Assembly (NCBI RefSeq): GCF_017051705.1
Contig: NZ_JAFIDJ010000002.1
Coordinates: 578,384-642,383 of the forward strand
Length of the DNA stretch: 64,000 nucleotides
Origin: Algoriphagus lutimaris
Lineage (GTDB): Bacteria; Bacteroidota; Bacteroidia; Cytophagales; Cyclobacteriaceae
Direction: 5' to 3'
Shown here: positions 10,865 to 59,143 of the stretch, piece by piece
How positions within the stretch are numbered: position 1 is the stretch's first letter
How the letters are laid out: each line of letters begins with the position of its first letter
Position numbers and translations under genes: made by a program
The notes under the pieces: model-generated
Database searches by the model: none
What the model was told of the DNA's origin: nothing
Seen by the model: only the letters and a program-made list of their open reading frames with translations

Positions 10865-13800
10865 ATGAAGTTGAGTAAAATAGAAGCTTCTGAAATAGCT
10901 CAAGTTTATGAAACTTGGTTGAACAGTTATATTTCAGGAGATATAGAAACCTACGATTCCTATTTCGACGATGAATATCATTTTATCGGCTCTACAAATA
11001 ATGAGGAATATTTATCCCGCAAAGAGACTACTGATTTCTTTCGGAAAACAGCGGACCAACTAGCTGGAAAAACACAGCTTAGAAATAACGAGAAAACTTT
11101 TGAGCGACAAGGGGATATCGTATTCATTACACACTTTTTTGATGCCTATTTCTTAAGTGGTACTGAATGGACCTATTACGACCGTTTTCGATGTTCATCT
11201 GCCCTACACCATACTGAACGAGGATGGCTTTTTATTTACCAACATTTTTCAACTCCGGATAGTAATGCCGAAGAAGGAGAAACCATAGGATACGATCAGA
11301 TCAGTGCAGAAAACAAGGAACTCCGGGAAGCAATTAATCGGAGAACCATCGAATTGGAAAATAAAACAAAAGATCTGGAGATACAGAACTCTCTGGAGCG
11401 GATAAGAGCGATTGCTATGGGAATGAGCAAGCCTGAAGATCTTTTGGAAATCGCTGAAAGTATTTTCATAGAACTTAAAAAACATGGATTCGAATCGCTC
11501 CGAAATACCATGATCAATATTTATCAGGACCAGCATGAATCTTTCCTCAATTATGATTTTTCTCCGAGTTCTGGTAAAACACTTACAACCATCGACTACA
11601 AGAGTCACCCCATTACAGAAAATCTTATCAAGGAAACCCGAAGTTCAAAAGACGTATTCTCTGAGTTTCAGGTGAAAGGCAAAAAGCTTCAGGAATGGAG
11701 AAATTATAGGAAAGGAATGGGAGAAGCAGACGATCCAGCACTGGATACTACGACTGTTCTCAGCTATTATTTCTATTCCTTCGAAGATGGGTCAATTGGA
11801 ATTTCCACCTATGAACCCATCAACCAAAATCAATTAGCGGTAATCAAGCTATTCAAAAACACCTTTGAACTAACCTACAAGCGCTATTTGGATCTTCAAA
11901 ATGCCTTGGCTCAAGCACGTGAGTCACAAATTGAAGCTGCTTTGGAACGCCTCAGAGCCAGAAGTTTATCCATGCAAAAAAGTGATGAACTGGCAGAAGC
12001 ATCCATTCTTTTGGAAGAAGAAATCAGAAAATTGGGCATTGAAAATTGGGGCTGTGCTTTTCATATCTATGATGAGGAAACTACTGATGGGACTCCCTGG
12101 GATTTAGAATGGTTTACTTCTTTTGCTGGATTCCTTCCTTTTTATAAGACTCCTCGCGAAAATGTTTTCCTCAAATACTATGATGAAAGTAAAAAAGGTA
12201 ATCCCCTCTACATTCAAGAATTTGGTCCAGATGTCATCAAGGAGCATTACGATTACCTCAAATCTATACCTGTTTTAGGAGATGCCTTAACCGAATTACA
12301 TGATTCCGGAGTACCGCTTCCCGAAAGGCAAATTGACCATGTGGCATTTTTCAACCATGGCCATTTACTGTTTATCACCTATAAGCCTGTACCTGAATCT
12401 CATGACATCTTTATTCGATTTGCCAAGGTATTTAATCAGGCATACACCAGGTTTTTGGACTTAGAAAAAGCAGAATTACAGGCTAAGGAAGCAAAATTAG
12501 AATCTGCTCTGGAACGCATCAGAGGTCAGGTAGCCTCTATGAGAGAATCTACCGAGCTATTGGAAATCATGGTTTCCATGCGAAAAGAGTTTGTAAATCT
12601 TGGACATGAAGCCCATTATTTCTGGCACATGCGATGGCTTCCTGAATCCTATGAAAAAGCTATGACATCAGGGGACGGCACTCAGATTGGGATGGTCATG
12701 AGCTTGCCGAGACAGATTCATGGAGATATTCAGGCAGTAGCAGATTGGGAAAAAGGTTCTGACCCTCTTTTTGTACTCGCGATGGAAACAGAGGAAGCGG
12801 TTGACTATGTGCACAAAATGATCACCTGGGGAGATTTTGAAAAAGTAGATCCTCAGGCCCCAACGCTCGATGATATCCGTCATATAGGAGGATTGACTTT
12901 TGTGATGGCAAGAACCTCACATGGAGAGATCGGTTATAGTCTCCCTGGTTCTATACCTAATCCACCCAAAGAGGGTATGGACACGCTGATACGCTTTGCT
13001 AAAGTATTTGACTTAGCCTACCAACGCTTTGAGGATCTGAAAAAAGCAGAGCATCAAACCCGTGAAACCCAAGTTGAATTGGCTTTAGAGAGGGTTAGAA
13101 GCCGTAGCATGGCCATGCAGAAAAGTGAGGAGTTGAAAGAAGTCATTCAGGTGGTTTTCGACCAATTTGTCTCATTGGACATCCTAGTGGAGCATACCGG
13201 GTTTATTTTGGATTATAAAGACCGAGAAGATATGTTCATTTGGCTGGCTGATAAGAATGGCGTTCCCTCACAAATCACACTTCCTTACTTTGATTGTCCT
13301 CACTGGAACAGCTTTTTGGAGACCAAGAAAAATGGAGGCAACTTCTTCACCAACCTGCATACTTTCGAAGAGAAAAACAGATTTTATGAAGACCTCTTTG
13401 AGTGGATCCCAGATGCCGCAGAAGGTCTCCGGGAAATCTATTTGTCCTACCCTGGCTTAGCGATTTCTACGGTCTTGCTGGATAACATCGGGCTGTACAT
13501 CGAAAACTTTGAAAGTAAACCCTATACCCCCCAGGAAAATGCGATTCTCATGCGATTTGGGAAAGTTTTCCAACAGACTTACACACGTTTTCTCGATTTA
13601 AAACGAGCAGAAGCTCAGGCAAAAGAAGCACATATTGAATCTTCCTTAGAGAGAGTCCGAGCTCAAACCATGGCGATGCATAATAGCCAGGATATTGGGA
13701 AGTGTATTGTGATGATGTTTGAGGAACTCACCGCCTTAGGAGTAAATGAAAAAACCCGCTTTGGTATCGGGATCCTAAACCATGAAAACGAAAACAATCA

Positions 13801-16171
13801 GCTTTGGACCGCCTCCAAAATTGAAGAGGAATTCAAACTACATATTGGGCATTTGGAAATGTCTTGGCATCCTTTGTTGAAAAGTGCACGGAAGGCATGG
13901 AAGGAGCAGATCCCGCTCCATACTTATGTACTGGAGGGAGAAGACTTGCTCAATTATTACAAAATGCTAAACCAAGCTCCTGATTATAAAATCCAAATAC
14001 CACTAGAAAAACTTCCTACAAGAGAATTCCACTATGGTTTTGTCTTCGAACATGGGTTTTTCTATGCCTTTAGTCCTATCGAATTTCCGGCCGATATAAT
14101 CCAAATTATTCATCGTTTCAGTTCTCTTTTCGGTCAAACCTACCGACGGTATCTAGACCTAAAAAGAGCAGAAGCACAAGCCAGGGAGGCACAAATAAAT
14201 TTAGGCGTAGAACGGGTAAGGGCCAAGGCATTGGCCATGCATAATTCATCGCAGATCCTGGAGGTAGTTGATGTTTTGAAAAATGAGATGCTTGGCTTGG
14301 AAATTTCAGGGGTGGTTGCAGCAACGATTTATCTAAAAGAAGAAGAGGATTTTATCCGGATGTGGGACCTTACTTCTGTCCAAGATACAGCAGATGGTTT
14401 TCAGGTTACTTTGGACTTGAAATTCAATTTATCAGAAACCCATCCTGAGTTCTTTGTTCGAAAAATATGGAATAATATAGCAAAGTATTTTGTAGAAAAG
14501 CAGGATCCAAATGACATGGCCATCACGATCGATTGGCTGAAACAATATAATGCAGAGGAGGCGGATAATGTAGCTGAATTTTTATCAACCAACACTTTTG
14601 AATACTTACTCCATCCCACTGTAAAATTAGCAAATGGGAAAATGTCGGTTGACATTTTGAATACTTCTCCTCCGGCCGAAATGGAATCCATAATGGTGAA
14701 AATGGGAGCTGCTTTTGATCTAGCATATAAGCGATTCCAGGACTTACAGAAAGCAGAAGCTCAAGTAAGGGAAGCCAAAATTGAGGCCGCTTTGGAAAAA
14801 ATAAGATCCCGTACCATGGCCATGCAGCATAGTGATGAGCTTCCTGAGGCTGCAAATGTCTTATTCAATGAAGTAAGAAAATTGGGTATTCCCGCCTGGA
14901 GTTGCGGATATAATATTTTATCAGAGGACCTTGAGTCCTCCATGTGTTGGATGAGTAGTGAAAATGAAATTCAAACTCCTTTTCGGTTGCCGCTTACCGA
15001 ACATGAAAGTATGCTTCCTTGGCACCAGGCTATCGTGAATCAGGAAGAGTTTTTTGTTTACGAGCAAGGAGGTGAAGATTTGGTAGAGCACTACCGGTAT
15101 TTGGGCGAGCTTCCCGAGCTGAAGCCAGTTTTAGAACAATTTGATGCAGCAGGTATTTCCCTACCTACTTTCCAGGTGAATCATCTGGGATGCTTTACAC
15201 ATGGTTTTTTATTGTTCATTACCTACGAACGGGTACCTGAAGCCCATGGTATTTTCAAGCGATTTACCAAAGTTTTCGAGCAAACTTATACCCGTTTCCT
15301 TGACCTGCAACAAAAAGAGGAGCAGGGCAAAAAACTGATAGCAGAAAAACAAAGATTGGAACGGGCATTAAAGGATCTACAGGCTACCCAGGCTCAACTC
15401 ATCCAATCTGAAAAAATGGCCTCCCTCGGTGAACTTACCGCCGGGATAGCCCATGAGATTCAGAACCCTCTAAACTTTGTGAATAACTTCTCTGAAGTAA
15501 GCAGCGAAATGTTTGAGGAATTGATGGAGGAAATTGAAAATGGAGATATGGAAGAGGTGAAAGCTATTTCCGCAGATATCAAAGAGAACCTCAGCAAAAT
15601 TAATCATCACGGCAAGCGGGCTGATTCTATTGTGAAAAGCATGCTGGATCATAGTAGATCAAGCTCCGGTGAAAAAAATCCCACCGACTTCAATGCTTTG
15701 GCAGATGAGTTTTTACGCCTCTCCTATCATGGAATCCGTGCCAAAGACAAAAGTTTCAATTCAGAATTTAAGCTGGACTTAGACCCCAAGCTTCCGAAGG
15801 TAAATATCATCGCAAAAGATATGGGAAGAGTGATTTTGAACTTGGTAAACAATGCTTTCTATGCAGTCAATGAAAAAGCGAAATCGTCAAATGGGGAATA
15901 TCATCCCGAGGTGATATTAAGTAGTAAAAAGATTCTTTATGGAATCGAATTATCTGTAAAAGACAATGGGAATGGAATTCCGGAAACAGCAAAGGAAAAA
16001 ATCTTCCAGCCATTTTTTACTACCAAGCCAACTGGCTCAGGAACAGGCCTGGGATTGTCTTTGAGCTATGATATCGTCAAAGCTCATGGAGGGGATTTTA
16101 GAGTCAAAAGTGTAGTGGGAGAAGGAACGGAAATGACCCTCTTTTTACCAATAGACCCAGAAAACAAATGA
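10865..16171 (+). CDS. Giant soluble histidine kinase: NTF2-like domain plus 7 GAF-like modules
   Basis: 1,768 residues, no signal peptide or membrane helix. Residues ~1-140 form an NTF2/SnoaL-like cone domain ([12 protein letters not shown], then the aromatic [22 protein letters not shown] strand pair). Seven modules of ~190 residues follow, their signalling helices (LERxRxxxxxM) near residues 175, 359, 549, 740, 928, 1114 and 1308. Each module alternates helices and strands in a GAF-like order and ends in a K-V-F-x-x-x-Y-x-R-F-x-D-L helix. The kinase core starts near 1500: His1530 in [14 protein letters not shown]-box [11 protein letters not shown]1 DNGNGIP, F-box FQPFFTTKP and G2 GTGLGLSL. 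It lacks a receiver domain. Module 3 is closely related to module 3 of the kinase at 38243. First gene of the cluster; its stop overlaps the next ATG by four bases. GAF assignment is from predicted topology only. Confidence 0.85.
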
Positions 16172-19100
16172 AAACGGAGGCCCAATTAAAAGCGGAAATT
16201 GAAAGACTCCAGCGCTCGATGGAAAAGCAAGCAATAGAGTTGGAATCTAAAAATCGAGAGTTGGAGATTGAGGCTGCTTTGGAGCGAGTACGATCCAGGA
16301 CTATGGATATGCACCAAAGCAATGAATTATTGGACACAGCTAAAATTTTATTTCACCAGTTTCAAGAACTGGGCATTGGACTCCATGTTTGTGGTTTTGG
16401 TATTCCAGATAAAGATAAACCCACTGGAATACAATATTTATCAATTGGCGGCACTGAATTTCCGGAACCAGTTCCAATACGTTTTGATAAAGACCCCTAT
16501 TTAATGAAAGCATATGAAGACTGGAAACTGGGTAAAACACACTTAATCTTTGATATTCAGGGAGAAGAATTAGAAAACCACCTAGCTGGTAATGCAGACC
16601 AATTCAAAGATCTGGAAAGTGCAGATATCTTGGCAAAACAGGCTGCAAAATATTCAAAGGGTCAAGCACAACAACCTCAGCGTTTAGTAGTCCATCACGC
16701 TTTCTTTAAACATGGTATTTTGTTTTTAACCAATGACAGGCCGATTGAAAATATAGAAATACTCGTCAGGTTTGCCAAAGTATTCGACCAAACCTACACC
16801 CGCTTCCTAGACCTTCAAAAAGCCGAAGCGCAGGCTAGGGAAGCACAAATAGAAGCCGGATTAGAAAGAGTCCGTGCGGCCTCCATGGCCATGCATAAAA
16901 GTGAAGAACTAAGTCAGGTCGTTGCGGTCATTTATGAAGAAATAAATAGACTTGGTTTTACTGACTGGGGTTGCTCAATCATTATTTGTGATATCCAAGC
17001 AAGTGTCATGCGATACTGGTATGCTGAGACCAACATGCCACATTTAGAAGGTTTTTGTAATGTGCCATTGACTAACAAAATTGCTAAAAAGACATGGGAC
17101 TTATGGCAATCAGGTATTCCTCAATTTGATATTAACCTCCTTGGAAAGGAAAAAGAGGACTACACCTCCTTTATGCTAAATAATACCGACTATAATCAGA
17201 TGCTTCCTGAGGAGGTTAAGAAAGGCTGGCTTAAACCCAAGGATATTTACTTATCCTATTTCACATTGAAATTTGGAATGCTTGAGTTTGTGGATATAAA
17301 ACCACTTAACCGAGAAAATTACCCGGCCTACGAGCGTTTTGCTAAAGTCTTCGAACAAACCTATACCCGCTTCCTAGACCTTCAAAAAGCCGAAGCGCAA
17401 GCTAGGGAAGCACAAATAGAAGCCGGATTAGAAAGAGTCCGTGCGGCCTCCATGGCCATGCATAAAAGTGAAGAACTCGTTGACGTGGTTCGGGTGCTAG
17501 ATCGAGAACAAATCGCGCTAGGTATCGAATTTAATGGTTCACAAATCATCACCGACTTTTCAAATATTAACGAAGGTCTTAATAGTTGGTTCGCACGTGA
17601 AGGGCAAGGATACCTTAATAAATTCCATATTCCATTTTCTGAGGAGTACTTCAGGATTTTAACCCATCCAACGGAAGATGGTCTCCCGTTTTACACTGAA
17701 AAATATTCGAAAGAAGAAAAAAACAAGTTTTTCAGGTGGTTATTTAAGTATTCCGATTTTAAAATTATACCAAAGGAGAGACAGGAATTTGTGTATCAAA
17801 CACCTGGCTGGGTAAGAGCTGTCGTGCGATCAAAGAACTCTATCCTGGTACTTCAACGGTTCAGTCTCACTGAGTTCACAAAAGAAGAAGAGGAAATTTT
17901 TAAACGCTTCGGCAAAGTATTCGAACAAGCCTACACACGCTTCCTTGATCTAAAAAAGGCAGAAGCACAGGCTAGAGAGGCACAGATTGAAGTGGCATTA
18001 GAGCGGGTACGTGCTAGAACCATGGCAATGCATAAAAGTGATGAACTAACAGATACCGCTTCACAAATATATGTAGAGCTGGAATCCTTGGGTATAAAAC
18101 CACTTGCATTTGGGTTTAATATTTGGGTTTCAGGCAAACCTATTGCAGAAGCCTGGTCATGTGCAGGTTCGCCTGATATTATGTGGAAAATGAATGTTCC
18201 CCACAATATCGACCCCTACCTTAAAAAAATATATAAAGGGAAAAATTCAGGTGCAGATCTATTTTCAGAAACTGTCAAGGGGAAAGCCTTGAAAAAACAT
18301 TTTGAATACATGAAGACGATAATGAGTCAGGGAGAATTATCTGACGATTCATCTGACCTTTTGTTTCATTTACCGGAATCCATGTATATGAATGCAGCCT
18401 ATTTTAAACAAGGTTATTTGCTTTTGACGACCCTATTTAAAAATGAGGAAGTAAAATCAATACTGGTAAAATTTGCCAAAGTATTCGAACAGACTTACAC
18501 CCGCTTCCTTGATCTGCAAAAGGCAGAAGCGCAAACAAGGGAAGCGGAGATTGAGGCTGCATTGGAGCGAGTTAGATCTAGGTCAATGGCCATGCATCAA
18601 ACAAATGAATTGAATGAAGTATCAATGGTTCTTTATGAGGAATTGATAAAACTAGGATTTCAGTTTGTTTCTTGTGGGTTCGAAATTATTCTTGAAAAGG
18701 AGCAGATATTAAAAGTTTGGAATCATGATTTTAACCAAGGACAGTTATCGCATTTCCAAATGCCACTTAAAGGAGATAATACCCTTAAAATGCGTTATGA
18801 GGCATGGAAAGATAGAAAGGCAATATTTCTACAAGAACTGAAAGGCATTGCACTCAATGACCACCTTAGACTGGGTGCACCTGAAAATGTGAAGTATGAA
18901 GAAAATCTGATTTCCTTATTCAATTTTCCAGACCCAGCATATTTCTGCCTTGCGAATTTTTCAAAAGGTTGTCTCCATGTTATTGGAAATAGCCAAATCC
19001 AAATTAATCATCAGAAGATTCTTATTCGCTTCGCTACTGTATTCGAACAGGCTTACACTCGTTTCCTTGACCTCCAAAAAGCTGAAGCACAGGCAAGGGA

Positions 19101-22100
19101 AGCACAAATCGAGGCTGCTTTAGAAAGAGTCCGAAGCAGGACTATGGCCATGCAAAAAAGTGAGGAGCTTACAGAGGTAGCTGGGTTACTTTTCAATCAG
19201 GTGAGTAAAATGGGCATTAAAGTTTGGACTGCAGGTTTTAATGTATGGAGTAAAGACAATAACTATTATACTGACTATGTCACGAGTCCTCAGGGAGAAT
19301 TTATCAAACCCTATAAGCTAGATACGCAGCAGAATCCGGTTTTAAAAGAAATAAGTGATGCTCGGAAAAGTGGGGTCGACTATTTTATGCAATATGCTGA
19401 AGGGGAGGACCTTAAGCAGATGTATCTGACACTTACTCGATTTATGGACGAAAAACAATATGAAATCATGCTGAAGGAAGGAAATCATTTGCCATCCCAT
19501 CAGTATAACCATTTTGTATTTGGCCAAGAGGTAAGTTTGATGTTTGTTTTATTTGAAGCTGTACCAGAAGCACAGGAAATTTTCCGAAGATTTGGTCAGG
19601 TTTTCGAACAAACCTACACCCGTTTCCTAGATCTCCAAAAAGCGGAAACCCAGGCGAGAGAGGCGCAGATTGAAGTAGCTCTTGAAAAGATACGTAACCG
19701 AACACTTTTGATGAAAGACAGTGCTGAACTGAATGAAACAGTATCTGTCTTTTTTCAGCAGTTTGATTTATTAGAATTATTGCCAAAGGAAGCAAGAACC
19801 TATTTCAGCCATGTTGATACGAATACAGATACAGTTCAAGTCTGGATGACTCACGCAGATGGACGGGTCATGTCGGGAAGTCATTTTACACCATTGAACC
19901 AATCTGCACAATTAAAGGCATTTTACTCGAAATGGAAGAAAGACAGAGGAATAATTAATATCCGTATCTATCAGGAAGAAGAATTAGCAAACTATATGGC
20001 ATTCCTAGCTACCCTGCCCCACGTGGCTAAGGATGAAGATTATCAAAAACTATTTAAATCTCCGCCTGATCAAATTGTGATGACAGATGCCGGTTTTTTG
20101 CAAGGATTCCTCGGTATCATGAGTTTTGAACCTTTGAAAAAGGAAGCCCTTGAAATTCTTTCCCGTTTTGCCAAAGCATTCGAATTTACCTACACCCGCT
20201 TCCTTGACCTCCAAAAAGCCGAAGCCCAGGCAAGAGAAGCGGAGATAGAAGCCGGTTTAGAACGGGTTCGATCCGCTTCAATGGCCATGCATCGCAGTGA
20301 AGAGCTTGAGAAAGTGGTAGAGGTAACATTTCGTCAACTTCAAAATTTAAGACTTCCCATAGATGGTTGTCAATTAATCACCTTTGAAGATCAATCAAAG
20401 GACTTTCATTTTTGGTCAGCTACACCGGACATGATTTATCCGACTCGTTTGAATATCCCTTATTTTGACCATCCATTATTCTCAAATTTTTGGGAAGCTC
20501 GAGATAGAGGAGACACTTTCATAAGCTTTGATTTAACGAGGCAAGAAACCCTGGATTTTTATAATCACTTGTACGATAAAACAAATCTCGGAATATCTGT
20601 GACGAAAGAAAGGTGGGAAAGAATTCAATCCATAGAACATGGATTTAAAACCTCCTGGGGTATTCAGAAAAACACGGGTCTTTGGGTTTTCAATTTTACT
20701 AATCACCAATTCACAGAAGAAGAGAATTCATTAATTGATCGCTTCGCCAGAGTCTTCGAACAAACCTATACCCGTTTTCTAGATCTACAAAAAGCGGAAG
20801 TTCAAGCTAGAGAAGCGGAGATTGAGGCAGCCCTTGAGCGGGTCAGGTCTAAAGCCATGGCCATGCACAATACCAGTGATCTTGCAAATGCCAATAGTGT
20901 AGTCTTTAATGAATTAAATTCATTAGGAATCACTCCTTTGAGATCTGGGATAGGATTGATTGAGGCGGAAACTAAGCAGGGAACTATGTATGCCACAGTT
21001 CGATCTGATCAAGGGAACAATCTGCTATTAATTGGGGAAATATCTCTGCAGGGAAATGAAGTTTTAGAATCAATATTCGATCATTGGAATAAGAAGAAGA
21101 TCTATTGTCCAAAGCTAAATGGAAAGGAATTACAGCAATATTACGATCTTATTCTTGCAAGCTACGGTGACTTGCCGAAACCAAAATTTTCAAAAAATGA
21201 AGTACAATACGGGTACTTCCTCCCTTTCAAGCATGGTTGTTTTTATGCCTGGACTCAAGAACCATTTAGCGAGGATAAGCTAAAGACAATTCAGCGGTTT
21301 GTAAGCGTCATTGACCTAACCTACAATAGATACTTCGACCTTCAAAAAGCGGAAGCTCAGGCTAGAGAAGCTGAAATTCAATTAGCTTTAGAAAGAGTGC
21401 GTGCTCGAACTATGGCCATGCAGCGAAGTGATGAATTAAAAGAGGTGGTAGCGGAAGTATTTGAAAAACTTTCAGAGCTGGATTTTGGTCTGAAAAATGG
21501 GGCAGCAATAATTCATATTTTCAACGATGATTCAAAAGATCATATAGAATGGATTGCCGACCCTTCTCAAATTTTTCCCAAAGGCCTCGAAATGCCCTTT
21601 TTCGAAAATCCCTTACGTTCAGATATTTTTAATGCCTGGCAAAGCGGGTTAAACTATTACTCTAAAGAATATTCCAAAGAAATAAAAGATGATTTTTTTG
21701 CCTTTACCTTTCAACATACTGATTATAAGAATATTGACAAAAAAATAAAGGAGGTAATTCAAAAAACTGGAAAATACTCGTATACAATTGCTTTTGGAAA
21801 AAATACTGCCATAGGAATCCCTGATACAACAGGTAGATTATTTACAGCTCAGGAAGAAGAAATTTTAACTCGCTTTGCCAAGGTCTTCGAACAAACCTAT
21901 ACCCGCTTTCTTGACCTCCAAAAAGCGGAAGCACAGGCAAGGGAAGCACAGATTGAGGCGGCTTTGGAGCGAGTACGAAGCCAGTCAATGGCAATGCAAC
22001 ATTCCGGTGAACTGAATTTAATTCTTGCCAAGGTTTTTGAAGAATTAACCAATCTGGAATTACAGATGGAGCGTGCTGTGATATGGATTTATTATCCAGA

Positions 22101-25877: not shown

Positions 25878-25879
25878 TC

Positions 25880-30702: not shown

Positions 30703-30726
30703 GTTGACCAAAAATTTGTTGAAAAT

Positions 30727-31866: not shown

Positions 31867-31889
31867 TCTTATCAAAAAAAATTAAAAAA

Positions 31890-44464: not shown

Positions 44465-44475
44465 CTTGACAAGCT

Positions 44476-45534: not shown

Positions 45535-45537
45535 TCT

Positions 45538-46260: not shown

Positions 46261-46327
46261 TGCTGCGAATATGTAGTCAAATCAGAAAAAACTCATTTGA
46301 AGATTAACTTATTGAAATTCAAGTTTT

Positions 46328-48454: not shown

Positions 48455-48458
48455 GAAT

Positions 48459-49160: not shown

Positions 49161-49184
49161 AACCCTAGCCAAAAATCAAGAACT

Positions 49185-49937: not shown

Positions 49938-50650
49938 TGCTTAGATTCTTAAGACATATCCGAAAAAACCTTATGGAACAGGATAAAATTCGTTCCTATA
50001 TCCTCTATGCCATTGGTGAAATCACTTTGGTGGTAATTGGAATTTTGATTGCCCTTCAGGTCAACAACTGGAATGAAACCCGAAAGACCATGAAGAAAGA
50101 GCAAGCAAGCCTGAAAAAGATAGCTCAAAATCTTCAAGAGGACATTGATCTACTACAAGAAATAATCCACGAGGACTCCACAATTTATGAAAACCTGAGT
50201 AAGCTGTCCAATCAAATCATAGATGCTAACTCGGTCGATGACTTAGACCCCTCTAGTAGTGCCAGATTTCGGGTGCCATTGTTCTACCCCAATCAAAGTG
50301 CTTTTGAAAATCTGCTATCCTCAGGTCAGATTGAAATTATCCAAAATGACAGTCTGACCCAACGTCTACAGCTGTATTATAGATCCATAAAAATCATTCA
50401 AGAGGGCACAGATTTTTCTCTCAGAAATTATAGTCGTGACATCGAGAAGTTTTTCATGGAATTTGATCATGTTAGAGATCATCCAAAACTTAAAAAGAAA
50501 GCTATCGCAGCCTACCGGGAAGATCCATTTTTGCTAAATTCTCTGTATTACAAAAATGGACTGATTCTTCGTCAAATTTCGAATTATTCCAAGATCATGG
50601 TTGAAGCCCAAGGTATACTTGCTTTGATTGAAAATGAAATTTCATCTTAA
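49937..50650 (+). CDS. DUF6090 membrane protein, copy 8
   Basis: 237 residues. The N-terminus is more diverged (MLRFLRHIRKNLMEQDKIRSY), but the membrane helix and NNWNETRK follow the family. The mid-motif FENLLSSGQIEIIQNDSL closely parallels copy 7, so the two are probably a tandem duplication. It overlaps copy 7 by one base and ends 23 bp before copy 9. Confidence 0.82.
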   Translation: MLRFLRHIRKNLMEQDKIRSYILYAIGEITLVVIGILIALQVNNWNETRKTMKKEQASLKKIAQNLQEDIDLLQEIIHEDSTIYENLSKLSNQIIDANSVDDLDPSSSARFRVPLFYPNQSAFENLLSSGQIEIIQNDSLTQRLQLYYRSIKIIQEGTDFSLRNYSRDIEKFFMEFDHVRDHPKLKKKAIAAYREDPFLLNSLYYKNGLILRQISNYSKIMVEAQGILALIENEISS

Positions 50651-50673
50651 ACTCTGATCAAAACTCAAGAATC

Positions 50674-51408
50674 ATGATCTCAATCTTCCGCAAAATCCGC
50701 CAAAAACTCCTTCAACAAAATCGAATTACTCGGTATATGACTTATGCTGTAGGTGAAATCTTCCTGGTGACTATCGGGATCCTAATAGCATTGAGCATTA
50801 ATACTTGGAATGAGGATAGAAAAGAAAAGATTTATGAGCGAAAGATGCTATTGGAATTAATGGAAGATATGCAGTTGGACACTGCATTCATGCACTTACA
50901 ATTACGCCGCATAGAAAATTTTGAAAGAAGCCTTGTTGCTTTAGAAAAACCCCTTTTAAGTTGGGAAGAACTAAAAGATGTAGACCCACAATTATTCGGA
51001 GGAGTGTACTTCATCCAAAACACGAAAGCCTTAGAAACCATCAAATCTGGGAACGTCCAGATTCCATTTGATGACCAACTGAGAAAACAAATCAATTCCC
51101 ATTATCATAACTCCAGGTTTTATCTGGATTTAATAATCATGGAGGATAAAAATTTCAATGAATTTCGAAGCATCCCCATTCAAAAAGAATATTTCAAAGT
51201 GGAACGTAATGAAGATTCTGAAATCTTTGACTTAAAAATTTTCCCAATAGATTTTGAGAAGATGAAAAATTCGCAAGAATTTAAGGATTTTCTGTTACTC
51301 CGAAGATCGCGTGTCAATCGATGGAATTGGGCCTACAGAAAAGTTTATGACTCCACTTTGGAAAGTATGAAGTCGATTCAAGAATACCTCCAGCAAAAGA
51401 CCAATTAA
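50674..51408 (+). CDS. DUF6090 membrane protein, copy 9
   Basis: 244 residues. MISIFRKIRQKLLQQNRITRY starts the cassette, but the end of the membrane helix reads IALSINTWNED instead of the IALQVNNWNE found in the other copies, the only change at that otherwise invariant place. The mid-motif is LETIKSGNVQIPFDDQL. The C-terminal helical domain is not clearly similar to any single sibling. 14 bp separate it from copy 10. Confidence 0.82.
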   Translation: MISIFRKIRQKLLQQNRITRYMTYAVGEIFLVTIGILIALSINTWNEDRKEKIYERKMLLELMEDMQLDTAFMHLQLRRIENFERSLVALEKPLLSWEELKDVDPQLFGGVYFIQNTKALETIKSGNVQIPFDDQLRKQINSHYHNSRFYLDLIIMEDKNFNEFRSIPIQKEYFKVERNEDSEIFDLKIFPIDFEKMKNSQEFKDFLLLRRSRVNRWNWAYRKVYDSTLESMKSIQEYLQQKTN

Positions 51409-51422
51409 CTATTCAAAGAATC

Positions 51423-52184
51423 ATGCGAGTATTTAATTCCATGCGAAAACTTTTCCTCTTCGATAATAAAGTAGCTAAATACCTCAGTTATGCATTTGGG
51501 GAGATATTCTTGGTGGTTATTGGAATATTGATCGCCCTTCAGGTGAATAACTGGAATGAGGAAAACAAACTGAAGAAACAAAAAGTCATCCTCCTAGCAA
51601 GTCTAAAAACTGAATTTGAAGAAAACCAAAATAGACTGAATATTTTATTAAGCTTTATTAATCAAAGAGAAGCTTATGCAAGAAGCCTTTTAGGAATGCT
51701 GCAGCAAATTCCTACTCAAGTGGACAGTGTGGAAACGGTCTTCGCTTTGGAAAGAACGGGCTTTGTCCATTATTTTAACCCAACACTTCCTACCTATGAG
51801 GAAATGAAATCCTCAGGGACTTTAAGCCTTATCGATAATAAAGATCTGAAAAGGCGGATGGCTGATTACCAAACATTTCTCGAATACAGCTTCAGAATAG
51901 AAGATGGGAACAAGGGCCCCATTCAACAATTTTCCGAGCGTGTTTTGAAATACATGGATCCAGATTTTGGTGATGTAAACATCACGGATAATGAGTCAAG
52001 AAAATATACTTCTGTAAAATTTGATCTTGAGGCCATGTCAAATGATCCTGAAATTCAGTATCTTCTGAAAATTATTATCCAAAAGAGTGTTCTTGAAGCC
52101 GGATACAAGGAGCGTATCTTCAGACCGAGGTTAACAGGGATCATAGGTTTGATTGAAGAAGAAATAAACCAAACAGCGGAATAA
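51423..52184 (+). CDS. DUF6090 membrane protein, copy 10
   Basis: 253 residues. The first 20 residues (MRVFNSMRKLFLFDNKVAKY) differ from the common cassette, while AFGEIFLVVIGILIAL and NNWNEEN are conserved. The mid-motif YEEMKSSGTLSLIDNKDL closely matches that of copy 1, so copies 1 and 10, at the outer ends of the two blocks, are the best-matched pair in this domain. It is followed by a 92-bp gap before the next kinase gene. Confidence 0.82.
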   Translation: MRVFNSMRKLFLFDNKVAKYLSYAFGEIFLVVIGILIALQVNNWNEENKLKKQKVILLASLKTEFEENQNRLNILLSFINQREAYARSLLGMLQQIPTQVDSVETVFALERTGFVHYFNPTLPTYEEMKSSGTLSLIDNKDLKRRMADYQTFLEYSFRIEDGNKGPIQQFSERVLKYMDPDFGDVNITDNESRKYTSVKFDLEAMSNDPEIQYLLKIIIQKSVLEAGYKERIFRPRLTGIIGLIEEEINQTAE

Positions 52185-52276
52185 CAAACCTGAAAGCTTG
52201 TTTTTCCAACCTTCTTCATACAGGATTTAATCCCTGCCGTGGCTTTTTGACACATGTTATTTAGACAGTTTTTTTA

Positions 52277-55200
52277 ATGAAAAAGCTAATTCAAACCCCA
52301 TTTTTTTTATTGCTTCAGTTCTGCGGTTTGGCCATGATTTCTTTGGCTCTAAACGCTCAGAACATTTCTCAGAATGCAGTTTTCAACAACATCACATCAG
52401 ATGAGGGACTGCCAAGTACTTCAGTCACCGATGTGACTCAGGACACCTACGGGTTTATCTATCTGGGTACTTGGGAAGGAGTTTTCCAGTTTGATGGAAA
52501 AAATTATAAAAAGATTTTTTATGAAGGCCGATATGTAGAAGCAGATGAAAAGGGAGGGGTCTGGATAGAAGCCGGAGATGGGGATTTGATTTATTATGAC
52601 TCCAATAAAGATAGCCTTTCATTTTACCGGGATATTGATTTGAATAGGAGGTATGTCCAAGTCCTCTTGGGAAAGCAAGGTGAAGTATTTGCCTCCACCA
52701 CAAAAGGAATCATGAAGCTAGACCCGGAAACTCAAAAATTTATTTTAGAGCCTGGGCAGGAATCAGGTGAAGTATATAATCTTCAACTTGGGGATGACGG
52801 AAGAGTAAATTTTATTTTAGTTCAAAATGGGAAAGAGGCAAAAATGGGGAAACGGCATCCTGATGGGAAATTCCACTATGAACAATTTCCTTTAGATGAA
52901 AACACTATCAATAAAACATCCTTTGCCACATACCGCCAAACTGTCATTCTTCCTTACGGGAATTCAGGCACAGTTCTTTTAAATCCGATTGGATTGGCTA
53001 CACGGGAATCCGATACTGAACCTTGGACATTTAAAAAATTCAGTGAACCTGAACTATTGAAGGAAAAAGGCCTTGGGAGTGAAGCTTCTTATATAATTCA
53101 TGGTCCATTTATATGGCTCAACCAACGGAACGCGATCACCAAAATCAATTTAGAAACAGGGGAATCCTTAACCATCCATTCTGGCACGAATACCCACAAA
53201 GAACTACTTCCAATGTCCAGTGATCACGGATGCAAATTATATTTGGATCGACAAGGGGTCATATGGATCACTAGATTCGCCTATGGAATCAGCCTTTTAA
53301 ATACCCATCAATCTGATTTTGGCCTTTTACGGGATGAACAAGGAAAAACCATCCCAGATATCCTTTCTTCTTACGAACTGGAAGATGGATCTTTTTGGAT
53401 AGGTCAGCGGATTTCTATTGAAAGTGGACTCATTCATTTTGCTACAGATGGAAAGAACATTCTCCACAGAATTGGAGCTTCCCAGGATAATCCTCCTGCT
53501 GGTAAAACATTCGGGTCAGAATTATCGCATCCCTATCCTTGGGCAATCGCAGAGACTTCTGATTCTACACTTTGGGTAGGAACAGGCTCTCCCGGAGATC
53601 AAAATGGAGGACTCAATCGGATAGACCCAAAAACAGGTTTGATTACCCGGTATCGAAATAATCCAAAAGATTCAACCTCTTTAAGTAAAAATTGGATTTT
53701 TGGAATTCAAGTAGATGCTAGAGACAAACTTTGGATCAGTCATACCGATGGAATGGATTTTTTTGATCCTGAAATAGAAAAATTCACCTCTTTGGTCAAA
53801 GATTCTTCCAATTCCAGACCCCGAGGAGTATTGATTGATTCTCAGGAAAATCTTTTGGTCCAAAGAACTGAAGATGGAGGCTCTTGGATGTTGATCGACA
53901 CCAAATCTAAATCTGTAATTAAACAAGGTGCATTCTTCGGTGAATATTTAGGTTATTCAACATCTCGGCCGGTTCTTGATACTAAAGGAAGAGTCTGGAT
54001 TGCTACAGTTGATGGATTTGGCTATGCAGATGAGGAATACAATGGATTAAAATTCTGGCAGAGTTATGAAGAGTTTGGATTTCCAGACCTTGAAATCAGA
54101 GCCTTCAGCTATGATGAGGATGGGTACCTCTATTTTGGAACTTCAGATGGTATTTTTCAATATCTCCCAGAAACTGGCAAAACAGTAAGATTTGGTATTG
54201 AAAGAGGGCTTCAATCCAGTTCATTTAATTCCAAACTGAAAAATCGTGGCCCATCTGGAAAAATCTACTTTTCGGGAAATGGTGGGATGAATGTGTTTGA
54301 TCCCAGTGAACTTCAAACTAATCCGTATCCTCCACAAATCATTATTAGAGGAATAACCCTAGATGGGAAAAATTACCAAAACTATTTGGACTCCACAGAA
54401 AGGAAACCAAACCATACCATTTCTTCTCTGCTTATTCCTCCTGGAATCACCACTTTAAATATCAATTTTGCGGCCATTCACTTTGGGGGAAATGGAAATA
54501 ATAGTTCCCAATATCGACTCACGAACTTTGATGATACGTGGCAAGAGGCGAGTGGAAATGCTGTTTTTACCAACCTACCAGCAGGGGATTATACACTAGA
54601 ATTAAAATCTGTCAACCTAGATGGGATCTGGAGTGAAAGCCCTCTCCGGGTTTCAATCAAAGTATTACCTCCATGGTATCAAACCTGGTGGGCTTATCTC
54701 CTTTACTTGGTCTTATTTATGATTCTAGCATATTTATTTATCCAAGAGCAAAGAAAAAGGGCCGCTCGAATCGAACGCGAAAAATCCAAAGATCGTGAGC
54801 TAGCTCAAGCCAAAGAGATAGAAAAAGCCTACTCTGAACTCAAATCTACCCAGGCCCAACTAATTCAATCCGAAAAAATGGCTTCACTCGGAGAGCTGAC
54901 CGCAGGTATTGCTCATGAAATACAAAACCCCCTCAACTTTGTCAATAACTTCTCGGAAGTAAGTTCTGAAATGATAGATGAACTACAAGAAGAATTGCAA
55001 AATGGAGAGTTGGAAGAAGCCAAGCTCCTAGCTACCGAAATTAAAGGCAACCTAAACAAAATCACTCACCATGGGAAGCGAGCGGATTCTATTGTCAAAG
55101 GAATGCTTGAACATAGCCGATCCAAAAAAGGAGAAAAGGAACTTACCGACATTAATGCGCTAGTTGATGAATTTGTAAGGCTTTCTTACCATGGTTTACG

Positions 55201-55684
55201 TGCAAAAAATAAATCTTTCAATGCTGATTTTAAGCTAGACCTTGACCCCAATCTTCCTAAAGTAAATGTAGTGGCTTCTGATATCGGCCGAGTGATTTTG
55301 AACTTAGTAAACAATGCTTTTTATGCGGTTAACGAAAAGGCGAATTCAAAAAACACAGACCCTGATTATAAACCACTCGTAACTGTGAGCAGTATCTACT
55401 CCCCCCAAGCAGGGGGGCAGGGCCTTTCTCGAGATATCGGGAGGGGGGCCATTCAGATCTCCGTCAATGACAACGGCTCTGGCATACCGGACTCCATCAA
55501 AGAAAAAATCTTCCAACCTTTTTTTACTACTAAGCCGACAGGTTCTGGTACCGGGCTAGGATTGTCTCTAAGCTATGATATAGTGAAAGTACATGGAGGA
55601 GATTTACGTGTGAGAAGTGTGGATGAAGAGGGCACTGAAATGATCCTCTTATTACCAGTAACAGACCAAATAAAAAACGAATAA
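52277..55684 (+). CDS. Two-component-propeller (Reg_prop/Y_Y_Y) histidine kinase
   Basis: 1,135 residues. Signal peptide ([13 protein letters not shown]...ALNAQ), then a large periplasmic propeller (~30-700; motifs such as [36 protein letters not shown]), a Y_Y_Y domain (~735-800, ending [11 protein letters not shown]), one membrane helix (~805-825), a coiled coil and the kinase core: His880 ([10 protein letters not shown]), [34 protein letters not shown]. Neither receiver nor AraC domain follows, unlike typical polysaccharide-sensing HTCS proteins. A compound repeat lies in the N-box to G1 loop (55399-55449). The 92-bp upstream gap could carry an internal promoter, though I see no clear consensus. 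The next gene, 39 bp on, has the same architecture. Confidence 0.88.
55399..55449 (+). repeat. Compound repeat: palindrome nested in the C-run/G-run element
   Basis: The C-run/AGCAGGGGGG element seen at 23652 and 25622 is interrupted by a second palindrome-like piece (TTTCTCGAGATATCGGGAG, about 55424-55442). In frame it reads [17 protein letters not shown], longer than the loop of any sibling. Confidence 0.65.
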
Positions 55685-55723
55685 AGTGTTGACCTCAAAC
55701 ACCCAACCCTAATAGATGAAATT

Positions 55724-58700
55724 ATGAAAAAAGACTTTTTTAAATATCTAGTGCTCCCCAGTACGTTCTTCTTTAGTTTACTGGCTTTCAACTCCTATAG
55801 CCAAATAAACGCATCAAAGGGAGTACCTAGCTTCACTAATTATGTGGTAGGCGATGATAATTTTGCCGGTCAACAAATCTGGGATGTGAATCAAAATAAG
55901 GAAGGTTTCTTATTCGTTGGCACAAGTTCAGGTCTTCAAAAATTTGACGGTAAAAACTGGGAACTCCTTTCCTCTCCTACCACCGAATTCAATACCAATG
56001 TAAGGTCTACCTTACTTGCCTCAGATAGTACATTCTATTTCGGATCGCTCGGAGATTTTGGTATTGTCACCACTGATTCCACTGGAAAAACCATAGAAAC
56101 ATCACTCATTGAAGGATATCCTTCAGACCTGGTTTTCAATGATATCTGGTCGATTCGGGAAAGTCAGGGGAAAATTTACTTCCAAGCCAGAGAAGCAATT
56201 TTCATTTATACTCCAGCTTCGGAAAATCAGGGAAGCAATCTCAAAGTTTGGAAACCGGATACTGAATTTATGTATGGTTTTAGCCTAAATGATACCTATT
56301 ATGCCCATCAAATCAACCTGGGTTTGTTTAAGGAGCAAGGAGGATCATTGGAGTTAGTGCCAGGCAGCCAATTTCTGGGAGAGGATAGAGTACAAGTTCT
56401 ATTACCCTATCAAAACTCTGATGGGTTTCTGGTAGGCGCCTTTTCAGGAGGATTGTATCATTACGATGGTCAGGATTTCATTCCCTTCCCAACTGAAATT
56501 GACCCTCTTCTAAAGGATAGAAGTTTATACAAAGCACTCAGTCTTCCTGATGGCACCTATGCCCTTAGTGTATTGGGACATGGATTTTTTATCATCGATC
56601 AAGAGGGAAAAATAAAATCGGAGTTTAACACCAAAAATTCCATTACCGACCAAAGTGTCTATGCTTTTTTCCTGGACAATACTTCTAATTTATGGGTGGG
56701 TACAAACAGTGGGCTTTCAAAAATTGAAATTTTTTCACCGATTTCTAGATTTGATTCTGATCAATATGAAATAGGAAGTCCATTATCTCTTGGTGCCTAT
56801 GACGACAATTTATACATCGGAACATCAACTAATGTGCTGTACCTAGATAAGTCTGATGGGGTCGTCAAGCAAGTCGAGGGAATTCCCAATACCCAGGTAT
56901 TTGATCTTGTTCCAGATGTTAATCAGATGTTGAGCACTGGAGTTGGGGTATATTCAATTAGGGGAAAAACCTCCAAGATCATTCCAGGCACGGAGAGCTA
57001 CCAGACACTTAAAATAGTGATTTCGGAATTTCATCCAGGATACGTGTTTATTAGTGGAGGATTTGGTATTCAGGTATTCAAAAGAGAGAAGGGAATCAAT
57101 GGGGAGTATGATTATGAAAATATCGGCTCTATTTCCGGTGTGGAACGATCGATCTATAGCTTGGCCGAAAATCAGGAAGGTGAACTCTGGGGCGGTACCC
57201 AGGCAGGCGTACTATTCAGGATTGTTTTCCAAAAAACGGCATCTGGCAATCTAGATGTTCCCAACGCAAGGGTAACAGAAATCAGCGAAAAAGATGGGGT
57301 TAGAGGTTTATCAGGTCTTGCCGTAGGACCGATTGAGGGCAAAGTATATACTTCTGGTATCGATGGGTTCTATTTTTTCAATTCAAGTATCAATGAATTT
57401 GAGCGCGACCCGGTCTTCAGTTTCTCCGATGAAGTAGCCAACATCAACCTGGACACCTATGGCCTTGGAGTGGGAGAAACCGGCAATGTTTATTTGGACT
57501 TCAAAGGAGAAAAACGCTTGGCTGTACGGCAAGAAGATGGAAGCTTTCAGCTCCAATCCTATCCATTTAATTTAATAACAGCCAGTTCTGTTGCCTCAGG
57601 ATTTACAGAGCCTAGTGGGGTAATATGGTTTGGCACAGATGACGGGCTGATCAGGCTTGATCCCAATAAAGATTATAGAACAGACCATCCGCTTCCACTA
57701 TATTTCACTTCTGCATCGACGAGCGAGAATATTTTACCGATTAGCATGCAGTCCGGAGGATCAACTGTGGAAATTCCATATAAGGGCAATTCCATTAGTT
57801 TTAACTTTACTGCACCATTTTTTGTAAAAGAAAATCAGATTCGATATCAGACATTTTTAGAAGGGCTGGATGAAGAATGGTCTGACTGGACAGAAAATGT
57901 CTCAAGGGAATTCTCCAATCTCCCTTATGGATCGTACACCTTTCGAGTACGCGCAAAAAACACCTTTAACACCATCTCTAATGAGATCGCCTACCCCTTT
58001 GAAATACTTCCTCCTTGGTATGCCACTTGGTGGGCATTCCTCATTTACTTTATTGTCTTTGTCTTAATCGTCTATGGGCTGGTTAAATTCCAGACTAACA
58101 GGGTTTTGGCAAGAGAAAAAGTAAAAACACAGGAACGGGAATTAGCTCAGGCCAAAGAAATTGAAAAAGCATATAAAGAGCTCAAGGCTACACAGGCTCA
58201 GCTAATTCAATCCGAAAAAATGGCTTCTCTTGGAGAGCTCACAGCTGGAATTGCCCATGAAATTCAAAATCCTTTGAACTTCGTAAACAACTTTTCCGAC
58301 CTAAACCAAGAGCTCATCGATGAATTGGAAGATGAAATCGAAAAAGGAAACCTTCTTGAAGTAAAGCAAATCGCAGCTTCAATCAAGGAAAATGAGGCCA
58401 AAATCCAACAACATGGTAGACGTGCAGATCTAATTGTCAAAGGAATGCTTCAACATAGCAGAGCAAATTCTAGTGAGAAAAAGGAAACCGACCTCAATTC
58501 CCTTGCAGAAGAATTCCTGAAGCTTTCCTATCATGGACTCCGGGCAAAAGACAAGAGCTTTAATGCAAACTTCAAGCTTGAACTCGATCCTAATCTCCCA
58601 AAAGTGAAAGTTGTGGCTTCAGATATCGGAAGAGTAATTTTGAATTTGGTGAATAATGCTTTTTATGCCTGTGCAGAGCAAAGCCAAAGCAGCATCAATG

Positions 58701-59005
58701 GAAAAGCACAAACAGGTCCCGATGGCCTTCTTGACAATAAATACGAACCGGAAGTAATTGTCAGCTCGAAGCAGACTCAACATGGTATCGAACTCTCGGT
58801 GAAAGATAACGGCCCCGGCATTCCGGACTCCATCAAAGAAAAAATCTTTCAACCCTTCTATACCACCAAGCCCACTGGCTCCGGTACTGGACTTGGGTTA
58901 TCGCTAAGCTATGATATCGTAAGGGCGCACGGCGGAAAAATTAAAGTCATTTCGAAAAAAGGGGAAATGACCGAATTCATTATTTCTCTCCCTTTTTCTA
59001 TCTAG
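55724..59005 (+). CDS. Two-component-propeller (Reg_prop/Y_Y_Y) histidine kinase, last gene of the cluster
   Basis: 1,093 residues. Signal peptide (MKKDFFKYLVLPSTFFF...NSYSQ), periplasmic propeller (~30-680; GFLFVGTSSGLQ, NLWVGTNSGLSK, GVIWFGTDDGLI), Y_Y_Y domain (~690-765, ending LPPWYATWWAF), one membrane helix (~770-792), coiled coil, and kinase core with His845 ([10 protein letters not shown]), [26 protein letters not shown] (Tyr where the siblings have Phe) and GTGLGLSL. The coiled coil [14 protein letters not shown] matches that of the preceding kinase, so the two probably arose by duplication. A degenerate repeat insertion follows the N-box (58670-58688). No receiver or DNA-binding domain. 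A strong terminator follows 103 bp after the stop. Confidence 0.88.
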   Translation: MKKDFFKYLVLPSTFFFSLLAFNSYSQINASKGVPSFTNYVVGDDNFAGQQIWDVNQNKEGFLFVGTSSGLQKFDGKNWELLSSPTTEFNTNVRSTLLASDSTFYFGSLGDFGIVTTDSTGKTIETSLIEGYPSDLVFNDIWSIRESQGKIYFQAREAIFIYTPASENQGSNLKVWKPDTEFMYGFSLNDTYYAHQINLGLFKEQGGSLELVPGSQFLGEDRVQVLLPYQNSDGFLVGAFSGGLYHYDGQDFIPFPTEIDPLLKDRSLYKALSLPDGTYALSVLGHGFFIIDQEGKIKSEFNTKNSITDQSVYAFFLDNTSNLWVGTNSGLSKIEIFSPISRFDSDQYEIGSPLSLGAYDDNLYIGTSTNVLYLDKSDGVVKQVEGIPNTQVFDLVPDVNQMLSTGVGVYSIRGKTSKIIPGTESYQTLKIVISEFHPGYVFISGGFGIQVFKREKGINGEYDYENIGSISGVERSIYSLAENQEGELWGGTQAGVLFRIVFQKTASGNLDVPNARVTEISEKDGVRGLSGLAVGPIEGKVYTSGIDGFYFFNSSINEFERDPVFSFSDEVANINLDTYGLGVGETGNVYLDFKGEKRLAVRQEDGSFQLQSYPFNLITASSVASGFTEPSGVIWFGTDDGLIRLDPNKDYRTDHPLPLYFTSASTSENILPISMQSGGSTVEIPYKGNSISFNFTAPFFVKENQIRYQTFLEGLDEEWSDWTENVSREFSNLPYGSYTFRVRAKNTFNTISNEIAYPFEILPPWYATWWAFLIYFIVFVLIVYGLVKFQTNRVLAREKVKTQERELAQAKEIEKAYKELKATQAQLIQSEKMASLGELTAGIAHEIQNPLNFVNNFSDLNQELIDELEDEIEKGNLLEVKQIAASIKENEAKIQQHGRRADLIVKGMLQHSRANSSEKKETDLNSLAEEFLKLSYHGLRAKDKSFNANFKLELDPNLPKVKVVASDIGRVILNLVNNAFYACAEQSQSSINGKAQTGPDGLLDNKYEPEVIVSSKQTQHGIELSVKDNGPGIPDSIKEKIFQPFYTTKPTGSGTGLGLSLSYDIVRAHGGKIKVISKKGEMTEFIISLPFSI
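58670..58688 (+). repeat. Degenerate copy of the TGTGCTGAGCG repeat in the kinase core
   Basis: TGTGCAGAGCAAAGCCAAA matches the 19-bp element at 48137-48155 at 15 of 19 bases and sits at the same protein position (FYACAEQSQSS). It looks like an older insertion that has drifted. Confidence 0.6.
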
Positions 59006-59107: not shown

Positions 59108-59143
59108 AACTTATTCCTTCAAGGCCCTTTGAAGGAATAAGTT
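59108..59143 (+). terminator. Rho-independent terminator of the kinase cluster
   Basis: A perfect 15-bp stem (AACTTATTCCTTCAA and its complement) with the loop GGCCCT, followed by a short T tract. It lies 103 bp after the last kinase stop and is the only strong hairpin terminator I found after the plus-strand cluster. Being nearly symmetric, it could act on both strands. Confidence 0.8.

What the first reader, a model, noticed from the sequence alone, without database searches (positions are those of the whole stretch)
10865..59005. 48-kb co-directional signalling cluster: ten histidine kinases, no response regulator
Twenty-three consecutive plus-strand genes, with start/stop overlaps or gaps of at most 92 bp, encode ten complete histidine kinases (H, N, G1, F and G2 boxes all seen), three FIST proteins and ten DUF6090 membrane proteins. 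No receiver, HPt or DNA-binding domain is present. Having ten kinase cores of nearly the same sequence with different sensors (stacked GAF-like, TPR, propeller, 7TM, FIST partner) suggests a many-to-one network or heterodimerising kinases. I know of no described system of this form.
Basis: partly seen in the sequence, partly recalled or inferred. Interest (0 to 1): 0.88.

Follow-up and report, generated by a model that had tools for sequence, protein, structure and literature searches.

The report
Kinase array feeding one adenylate cyclase
A bacterial gene array of thirteen look-alike sensor kinases with very different sensors ends in a shared receiver protein and a receiver-controlled enzyme that probably makes cyclic AMP, so it looks like a many-inputs-to-one-switch circuit in which sensors can be exchanged while the shared connector stays fixed.

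Summary
The 23 genes are there as described: ten histidine kinases, three FIST proteins, ten DUF6090 proteins, all on the plus strand, and no receiver inside the window. "No response regulator" is nonetheless an effect of the window's edge. The run continues with three more kinases of the same family. It ends, 9.7-11.1 kb past the window, in a stand-alone receiver and a receiver fused to a class III cyclase with adenylate-cyclase-type residues. The module [kinase]n - receiver - receiver-cyclase recurs across Bacteroidota: a receiver lies directly upstream of the receiver-cyclase in 52 of 60 full-length loci. In 40 genomes of the genus, kinases and receiver pair occur together in 28 and are both missing in 12. 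Each of the 28 has one receiver-cyclase (told by frame length) but 1-17 kinases. The phosphotransfer helix is almost invariant among paralogues although synonymous sites differ. In 9 of 65 cross-genome pairs of similar sensors the core is far less similar than the sensor; in the clearest cases the break lies just after that helix. Best reading: a many-to-one two-component network driving one probable cAMP cyclase, with exchangeable sensors. Phosphotransfer and cAMP synthesis are inferred, not shown.

The parts
10865..16171 (+). Histidine kinase: SnoaL-like domain, GAF-fold repeats, class A core
16168..23898 (+). Histidine kinase, 2576 aa: at least eleven GAF-fold repeat units by motif spacing, class A core
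   Evidence: repeat fold
23895..25877 (+). Histidine kinase: TPR sensor, class A core
25880..29545 (+). Histidine kinase: Reg_prop/Y_Y_Y propeller sensor, class A core
29548..30702 (+). FIST protein 1 (FIST_N + FIST_C)
   Evidence: NosP model 41.9 bits against cut-off 450
30727..31866 (+). FIST protein 2
31890..33029 (+). FIST protein 3, directly upstream of the sensor-less kinase
33030..34082 (+). Sensor-less histidine kinase (350 aa), presumed FIST partner; class A core, which differs from that of its counterpart in G077
34063..38250 (+). Histidine kinase: SnoaL-like domain, GAF-fold repeats, class B core
38240..41866 (+). Histidine kinase: SnoaL-like domain, GAF-fold repeats, class B core
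41863..46260 (+). Five DUF6090 genes (41863, 42618, 43673, 44476, 45538): conserved N-terminal hydrophobic helix plus variable helical part
46328..48454 (+).
48459..52184 (+). Five DUF6090 genes (48459, 49185, 49937, 50674, 51423)
52277..55684 (+). Histidine kinase: propeller sensor, class A core
55724..59005 (+). Histidine kinase: propeller sensor, class A core. The run goes on outside the window: three kinases at G000:C8:644143-651988, receiver 652034-652429, receiver-cyclase 652426-653466 (window = C8:578384-642383)
   Evidence: continuation
59108..59143 (+).
   Evidence: 18 terminator-like sites in the stretch against 13.4 expected; this one has the longest stem
4972..6918 (+). 7TMR-DISM class III cyclase upstream of the array; G077 has a cyclase at the same place; that it belongs to the circuit is only inferred

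Best explanation
A many-to-one two-component network with a second-messenger output. Thirteen kinases of one family at this locus, and two more at a second locus, read different inputs through stacked GAF domains, TPRs, propellers, other N-terminal parts or FIST partner proteins. All present nearly the same phosphotransfer helix to a shared pair of receivers encoded at the end of the array. One is a stand-alone receiver (shuttle, buffer or phosphate sink). The other is a receiver that switches its fused class III cyclase, so the summed kinase/phosphatase balance sets a cyclic nucleotide, most likely cAMP. Shown by sequence: gene layout, domains, presence of the catalytic residues, co-occurrence, near-invariance of the helix, and 1-17 kinases per single receiver-cyclase within the genus. 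Inferred: phosphotransfer, cAMP as product, direction of control, role of the stand-alone receiver. The FIST proteins probably act on the sensor-less kinase as NosP does on NosK. DUF6090 proteins are neighbours of unknown role.
For: The array ends in receiver + receiver-cyclase on the same strand. Of 60 family genomes, 13 have the receiver-cyclase and 14 the kinase family: 13 of 13 against 1 of 47 (Fisher p 2.7e-12). Of 296 phylum genomes, 21 have a full-length receiver-cyclase (of 27 with any match at E<=1e-60); all 21 have the kinase family, against 36 of the other 275. In 40 genus genomes the same 28 have kinases and the receiver family, each with one receiver in a 347-364-aa frame (the receiver-cyclase; its cyclase part was read in six of them), with 1-17 kinases. 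A receiver lies directly upstream of the receiver-cyclase in 52 of 60 full-length loci and a kinase in 54 of 60 loci. The phosphotransfer helix is 97-98% identical among 15 own kinases while third codon positions at identical residues agree in only 39-46%. Only three receivers of the partner family are found in the genome, against 53 receiver hits in all. Six residues recalled as class III catalytic residues are invariant in 12 of 12 aligned copies and align with CyaB (3r5g).
Against: No biochemical data. The second locus pairs two kinases with a receiver of its own, so not all kinases need share one target. The kinase family also occurs without a full-length receiver-cyclase in 36 of 275 phylum genomes, 35 of them outside the class. 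The local kinase profile is lax: it also flags kinases in the other 20 loci of the scan, some outside Bacteroidota, mostly near other receivers. In 8 of 60 loci no receiver is directly upstream, two of these being at a contig end. Genome counts are not phylogenetically independent: the 12 genus genomes without the system are small (2.2-2.8 Mb) and 11 of them are under 90% complete.
Confidence: 0.72

Rival explanations
1. Hub-and-sink: the stand-alone receiver is the main target of the array (as Spo0F is for KinA-E), and the receiver-cyclase is served mainly by the one or two kinases next to it, coupled to the rest only by competition for phosphate.
For: A stand-alone receiver is directly upstream of the receiver-cyclase in 52 of 60 loci; extra stand-alone receivers sit within or at an end of other kinase arrays (G001, G050, G026, G039, G053); Spo0F is among the best receiver matches in solved structures for the receiver-cyclase.
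Against: Both receivers keep the acid pocket, phospho-Asp and Lys, and all kinases show nearly the same helix, so nothing in sequence separates two kinase classes by target.
Confidence: 0.18
2. Insulated pathways: the array kinases use various other receivers among the genome's 53, and the receiver-cyclase belongs to the nearest kinases only.
For: Fifty other receiver hits exist; the family also occurs in genomes without a full-length receiver-cyclase.
Against: Phosphotransfer helix near-invariant across 144 kinases of 20 genomes, unlike five other own-genome kinases (mean identity 0.28 among them, 0.91 among the seven distinct family windows; a small control); joint presence and absence in 40 genus genomes.
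Confidence: 0.08
3. A by-product of tandem duplication and domain shuffling with little shared function; many kinases are redundant or in decay.
For: Copy number varies widely (1-21 per genome); unlike-sensor kinases starting under 9 kb apart have more similar cores (59.6 against 55.4% identity).
Against: All ten window kinases are open reading frames with both kinase domains; the helix is conserved in protein but not in silent positions; a block of the same order persists in another species.
Confidence: 0.05

Closest known systems
Bacillus sporulation phosphorelay, KinA-KinE onto Spo0F
   Same: Several kinases with different sensors converge on one receiver (passages of PMC12471899).
   Different: Here kinases and receivers form one gene array, with 13 kinases here and 19 in G001; no HPt hit in the proteins of the run that were scanned; the output is a cyclase; kinase number varies strongly between genomes.
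NosP-NosK(NahK)-NosR nitric-oxide systems
   Same: FIST protein beside a sensor-less kinase; receiver with a nucleotide-signalling output (passages of PMC12570481; layout).
   Different: FIST 1 scores 41.9 bits against a cut-off of 450 for the NosP model; output is a cyclase, not HD-GYP; FIST is one input among many.
Receiver-cyclase response regulators (receiver + class III cyclase)
   Same: Domain architecture Response_reg + Guanylate_cyc. That this is a known output class is recalled, not looked up.
   Different: Tied here to a kinase array and a stand-alone receiver as a conserved Bacteroidota module.

Membership tests
Two-component histidine kinase (HisKA/HATPase_c) | HisKA with phospho-His plus HATPase_c | tested here: met
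   10 of 10 window kinases, HisKA below the cut-off in 2; His present in 144 of 144 aligned family cores
Receiver-cyclase response regulator | Receiver with phospho-Asp and class III cyclase domain with its catalytic residues | tested here: met
   Pfam; residues invariant in 12 of 12 aligned copies; role of each residue recalled
Receiver-cyclase response regulator | Cyclase activity controlled by phosphorylation | not testable with these tools
   needs enzymology
Many-to-one two-component network | More kinases than receivers of one partner family, with one phosphotransfer interface | tested here: met
   15 kinases and 3 receivers of the family; near-invariant helix. Sequence level only
Many-to-one two-component network | Measured phosphotransfer from several kinases to one receiver | not testable with these tools
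   needs biochemistry
NosP (NO-sensing FIST protein) | Passes the NCBIfam NosP equivalog cut-off (450 bits) | tested here: not met
   41.9 bits for FIST 1; the other two were not scanned with it
NosP (NO-sensing FIST protein) | Binds heme and changes autophosphorylation of the partner kinase | not testable with these tools
   needs protein work
GAF domain (the stacked repeats) | GAF fold | tested here: met
Phosphorelay | HPt domain or hybrid kinase within the gene run | tested here: not met
   no such hit in the 23 proteins nor in the five kinase and receiver proteins that extend the run; the 2056-aa gene was not scanned and the rest of the genome was not searched for HPt

The most novel reading that the evidence does not exclude
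A sensory 'bus' with plug-in sensors. The phosphotransfer helix is a fixed connector, and recombination just after it puts sensors, including ones nearly identical to genes of another genus, onto a different local kinase core. Bacteroidota can then add or drop inputs to one cAMP cyclase without evolving new specificity.
Probability: 0.42. Interest if true: 0.82.

Novelty: new variant of a known kind. Interest (0 to 1): 0.72.

Why it matters
Paralogous two-component systems are usually thought to diverge at their interface to stay insulated (recalled). Here up to about 20 paralogues seem held to one interface and one output while sensors vary freely. That gives a natural series (1 to 21 kinases for one receiver-cyclase) for testing how bacteria integrate many inputs. 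It also gives a way to find ligands of orphan sensors: all should report on one cyclase. It would place a cAMP-type messenger downstream of propeller and stacked-GAF kinases in Bacteroidota. The listings of my paper searches (open-licence papers, best 1-20 rows each) showed no account of that.

Tried and rejected
Rejected: 'no response regulator' for the system as a whole. Rejected: ten cores of one sequence (two subclasses). Rejected: recent gene conversion as the cause of the invariant helix, since third codon positions are not more alike there than on either side. Weakened: genome-wide concerted evolution of cores. Within-genome unlike-sensor pairs average 56.4% core identity (n=543) against 54.1% between genomes (1500 sampled of 7343); only the upper tail and near neighbours stand out (31 of 543 against 8 of 1500 at 75% or more; 59.6 against 55.4% for starts under 9 kb apart, 0 of 5000 shuffles). 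Six of 16 genomes show a within-minus-between difference under 1 point, three of these negative (G050, G093, G098). Sensor/core discordance is a minority: 9 of 65 cross-genome pairs with sensor identity of 60% or more; in 33 the core is 0-15 points lower, in 23 higher.

Led nowhere: Foldseek for DUF6090 gave no match at E<=0.001; the model is almost all helix, pLDDT 80.7. DUF6090 in the paper library: 0 papers. Paper searches showed no account of a kinase array with a receiver-cyclase, but searches listed only 10 of 2,201 and 12 of 337 papers. Only listings and abstract starts were seen, plus passages of PMC12471899 and PMC12570481. Covariation-based pairing was not tried, as the interface hardly varies. 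The host species was not identified. One search aligned P0001 with a one-base reference by mistake and was not used.

Limits of counts: one search examined 59 of the 80 loci; one search did the other 21, of which one (L150) holds a full-length receiver-cyclase with a receiver directly upstream, hence 60. Loci without a kinase: L090, L093, L116, L134 (the receiver-cyclase starts within 1 kb of the locus end), L121, L147. Loci without a receiver directly upstream: L090, L134 (contig end), L119, L126, L133, L140, L145, L147. 'Kinase family' means over 180 bits to a profile built from this window, which is lax outside Bacteroidota. Searches scored only up to 7-8 candidates per genome, and at most 43, so copy numbers there are lower bounds; my cut for 'full-length' left out six weaker matches (G312, G315, G327, G350, G359, G363). 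In one search receiver-cyclases were told by frame length.
Full report
WHAT IS THERE. The window is G000:C8:578384-642383 of a 4.72-Mb genome in 61 contigs. The 23 plus-strand genes at 10865-59005 exist as described, with spacings from -52 to +92 bp by the first possible start codons. Pfam finds HisKA and HATPase_c in all ten kinases (HisKA below cut-off in two), FIST_N and FIST_C in three proteins, and DUF6090 in ten (one just below cut-off). Eight cores are one subclass (62-83% identical to each other). The two GAF-type kinases at 34063-41866 are a second subclass (52-53% identical to a class A query core). No receiver hit is present in the 23 proteins.

THE MISSING REGULATORS. A core search of the whole genome gave 15 close relatives (E<=1e-45) and a sixteenth, more distant one (39% identical). 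The C8 run goes on after a terminator-like hairpin (59108-59143) and a 2056-aa gene. It then has a TPR kinase (644143-646281), a propeller kinase (646821-650519) and a 466-aa kinase (650588-651988). Directly after that come a 131-aa receiver (652034-652429) and a 346-aa receiver + class III cyclase (652426-653466), overlapping by 4 bp. They begin 9.7 and 10.0 kb past the window end. The second locus has kinase - kinase - receiver. Three receivers in the genome match the profile of this receiver family at E<=1e-30, the two at C8 and the one at C1; the genome has 53 receiver hits in all.

OUTPUT. In the receiver-cyclase, D176, K216, D220, D285, N294 and R298 are invariant in 12 of 12 aligned copies. 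They align with D, K, D, D, N and R of CyaB (3r5g; that this is the P. aeruginosa enzyme, and that this set marks an adenylate cyclase, is recalled). The receivers keep the acid pocket, the phospho-Asp and the Lys (8 of 8 aligned). The genome has nine class III cyclase hits and nine cNMP-binding-domain hits, so cyclic-nucleotide signalling is plausible. One of the cyclases is the 7TMR-DISM protein in this window (4972-6918).

CONSERVATION. Family level, 60 genomes, one per genus: receiver-cyclase in 13, kinase family in 14. All 13 with the receiver-cyclase have kinases, against 1 of 47 others, a partial hit in G008 (Fisher p 2.7e-12). Phylum level, 296 genomes: 27 have a match at E<=1e-60, 21 of them full-length (one each in 20 genomes, two in G219). 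All 21 have kinases, against 36 of the other 275; 35 of these 36 lie outside the class. Genus level, 40 genomes: kinases in 28, receiver family in the same 28, each with one receiver in a frame of 347-364 aa, which I take as the receiver-cyclase. The cyclase part was read in six of them (G000, G077, G085, G090, G093, G098). Summed over the tables, the 28 genomes hold 196 kinases and 71 receivers of the family, 28 of them receiver-cyclases (sums); kinases range from 1 to 17. The 12 genomes without the system are small (2.2-2.8 Mb) and 11 of them are under 90% complete, so these are not independent observations.

ANATOMY IN RELATIVES. G077 (same genus) keeps the order: genes of the same lengths as 6955-9120 and 9168-10475, two GAF kinases, three FIST genes with a sensor-less kinase, another GAF kinase, eight DUF6090 genes, three propeller kinases, a 2056-aa gene, a TPR kinase, a 1761-aa kinase, a propeller kinase, a 466-aa kinase, receiver, receiver-cyclase. 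G001 (another genus) has 19 kinases of the family on one strand between C55:31436 and 109220, then receiver and receiver-cyclase. In named genomes (Chitinophagaceae, Flavobacteriaceae, Cyclobacteriaceae, Dyadobacter, Mucilaginibacter and others) a receiver is directly upstream of the receiver-cyclase in 52 of 60 full-length loci, and at least one kinase lies in the locus in 54 of 60. Four of the six without a kinase have the receiver-cyclase within 1 kb of the locus end; two (L121, L147) are real misses. FIST directly upstream of a sensor-less kinase under 420 aa occurs in 10 genomes, once each; 23 FIST genes from 11 genomes were examined.

ONE INTERFACE, MANY SENSORS. Around the phospho-His (codons -10 to +13) the 15 own kinases are 97-98% identical in amino acids, yet third codon positions at identical residues agree in only 39-46%. 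So the helix is old and held by selection, not freshly copied. The same stretch is near-invariant in 144 kinases from 20 genomes, with His in all 144. As a small control, five other kinases found in own-genome loci share 0.28 identity over about this stretch, against 0.91 among the seven distinct family sequences.

SENSOR EXCHANGE. Among 65 cross-genome pairs with sensor identity of 60% or more, 9 have a core at least 15 points less similar than the sensor, 33 a core 0-15 points lower, and 23 a core higher. The sharpest case is G026_50930 and G093_163595, from different genera. Their sensors are 89% identical, but identity falls from 90% to 38% between two neighbouring 30-residue windows, just after the phosphotransfer helix. 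The core of G026_50930 resembles that of its neighbour G026_54295 (83%) rather than its sensor match (51%). Another case from two genera is G001_70223 and G050_434809: sensor 98%, core 76%. The FIST-partner kinase of this window has a 94% identical N-terminal part (96 residues) but only a 77% identical core in G077. In 72 of 126 kinases an own-genome core with an unlike sensor is closer than the core of the best sensor match elsewhere. Average effects are modest, and I did not rule out assembly artefacts in single cases.

SENSORS. A ~190-aa repeat is predicted with high confidence (pLDDT 94.0) and matches GAF domains, among them one with bound cAMP (5w10). A feedback of cAMP on these kinases is a guess with no further support. 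FIST protein 1: the only NCBIfam model reported is NosP, far below its cut-off.

MECHANISM AND RIVALS. I take the locus as a many-to-one network onto a receiver pair with cyclase output. Rivals are a hub-and-sink version in which the stand-alone receiver is the main target, insulated pathways, and functionless duplication. Against the known: like KinA-E onto Spo0F in convergence (PMC12471899, passages), like NosP-NosK in one sub-unit (PMC12570481, passages), but with an array of variable size and a cyclase output. The listings showed no account of it; they cover open-licence PubMed Central papers only and show the best rows only. Hence: new variant of a known kind.

Noticed in passing
G000:C8:544237-577104 (upstream of the window; L034, L031): 24 further DUF6090 hits in two tandem runs on the plus strand, parted by three minus-strand genes; 53 hits in the genome, none in 14 control genomes. 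Role unknown, no paper found.
   Followed up: partly
window 59505-64000, continuing to G000:C8:644058: 2056-aa protein with, by eye, a subtilase-like part and a tract of repeats of the type NGR[ST][IM]IN (not scanned against Pfam); G077 has a gene of the same length at the same place.
   Followed up: no
window 6955-9120: 721-aa protein with only a weak match to VioB (27.6 bits against cut-off 1250), followed by a 435-aa protein with a weak kelch match; genes of the same lengths stand beside the array in G077.
   Followed up: no
G001:C55:56686-58737 and 100911-104501 (L060, L062): Two cyclase-domain proteins sit inside the kinase array of another genus, one between two FIST genes, as if some sensors drive a cyclase directly.
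   Followed up: no
window 42618-43676 and 44476-45534: Two of the ten DUF6090 proteins are 352 aa long, about 100 more than the others, by a longer C-terminal part.
   Followed up: no
G099, G153, G347 (same phylum, other class): Kinase cores about as close as in the own class (E 1.6e-101 to 3.8e-105) but no receiver-cyclase match at E<=1e-60; they may use another output.
   Followed up: no
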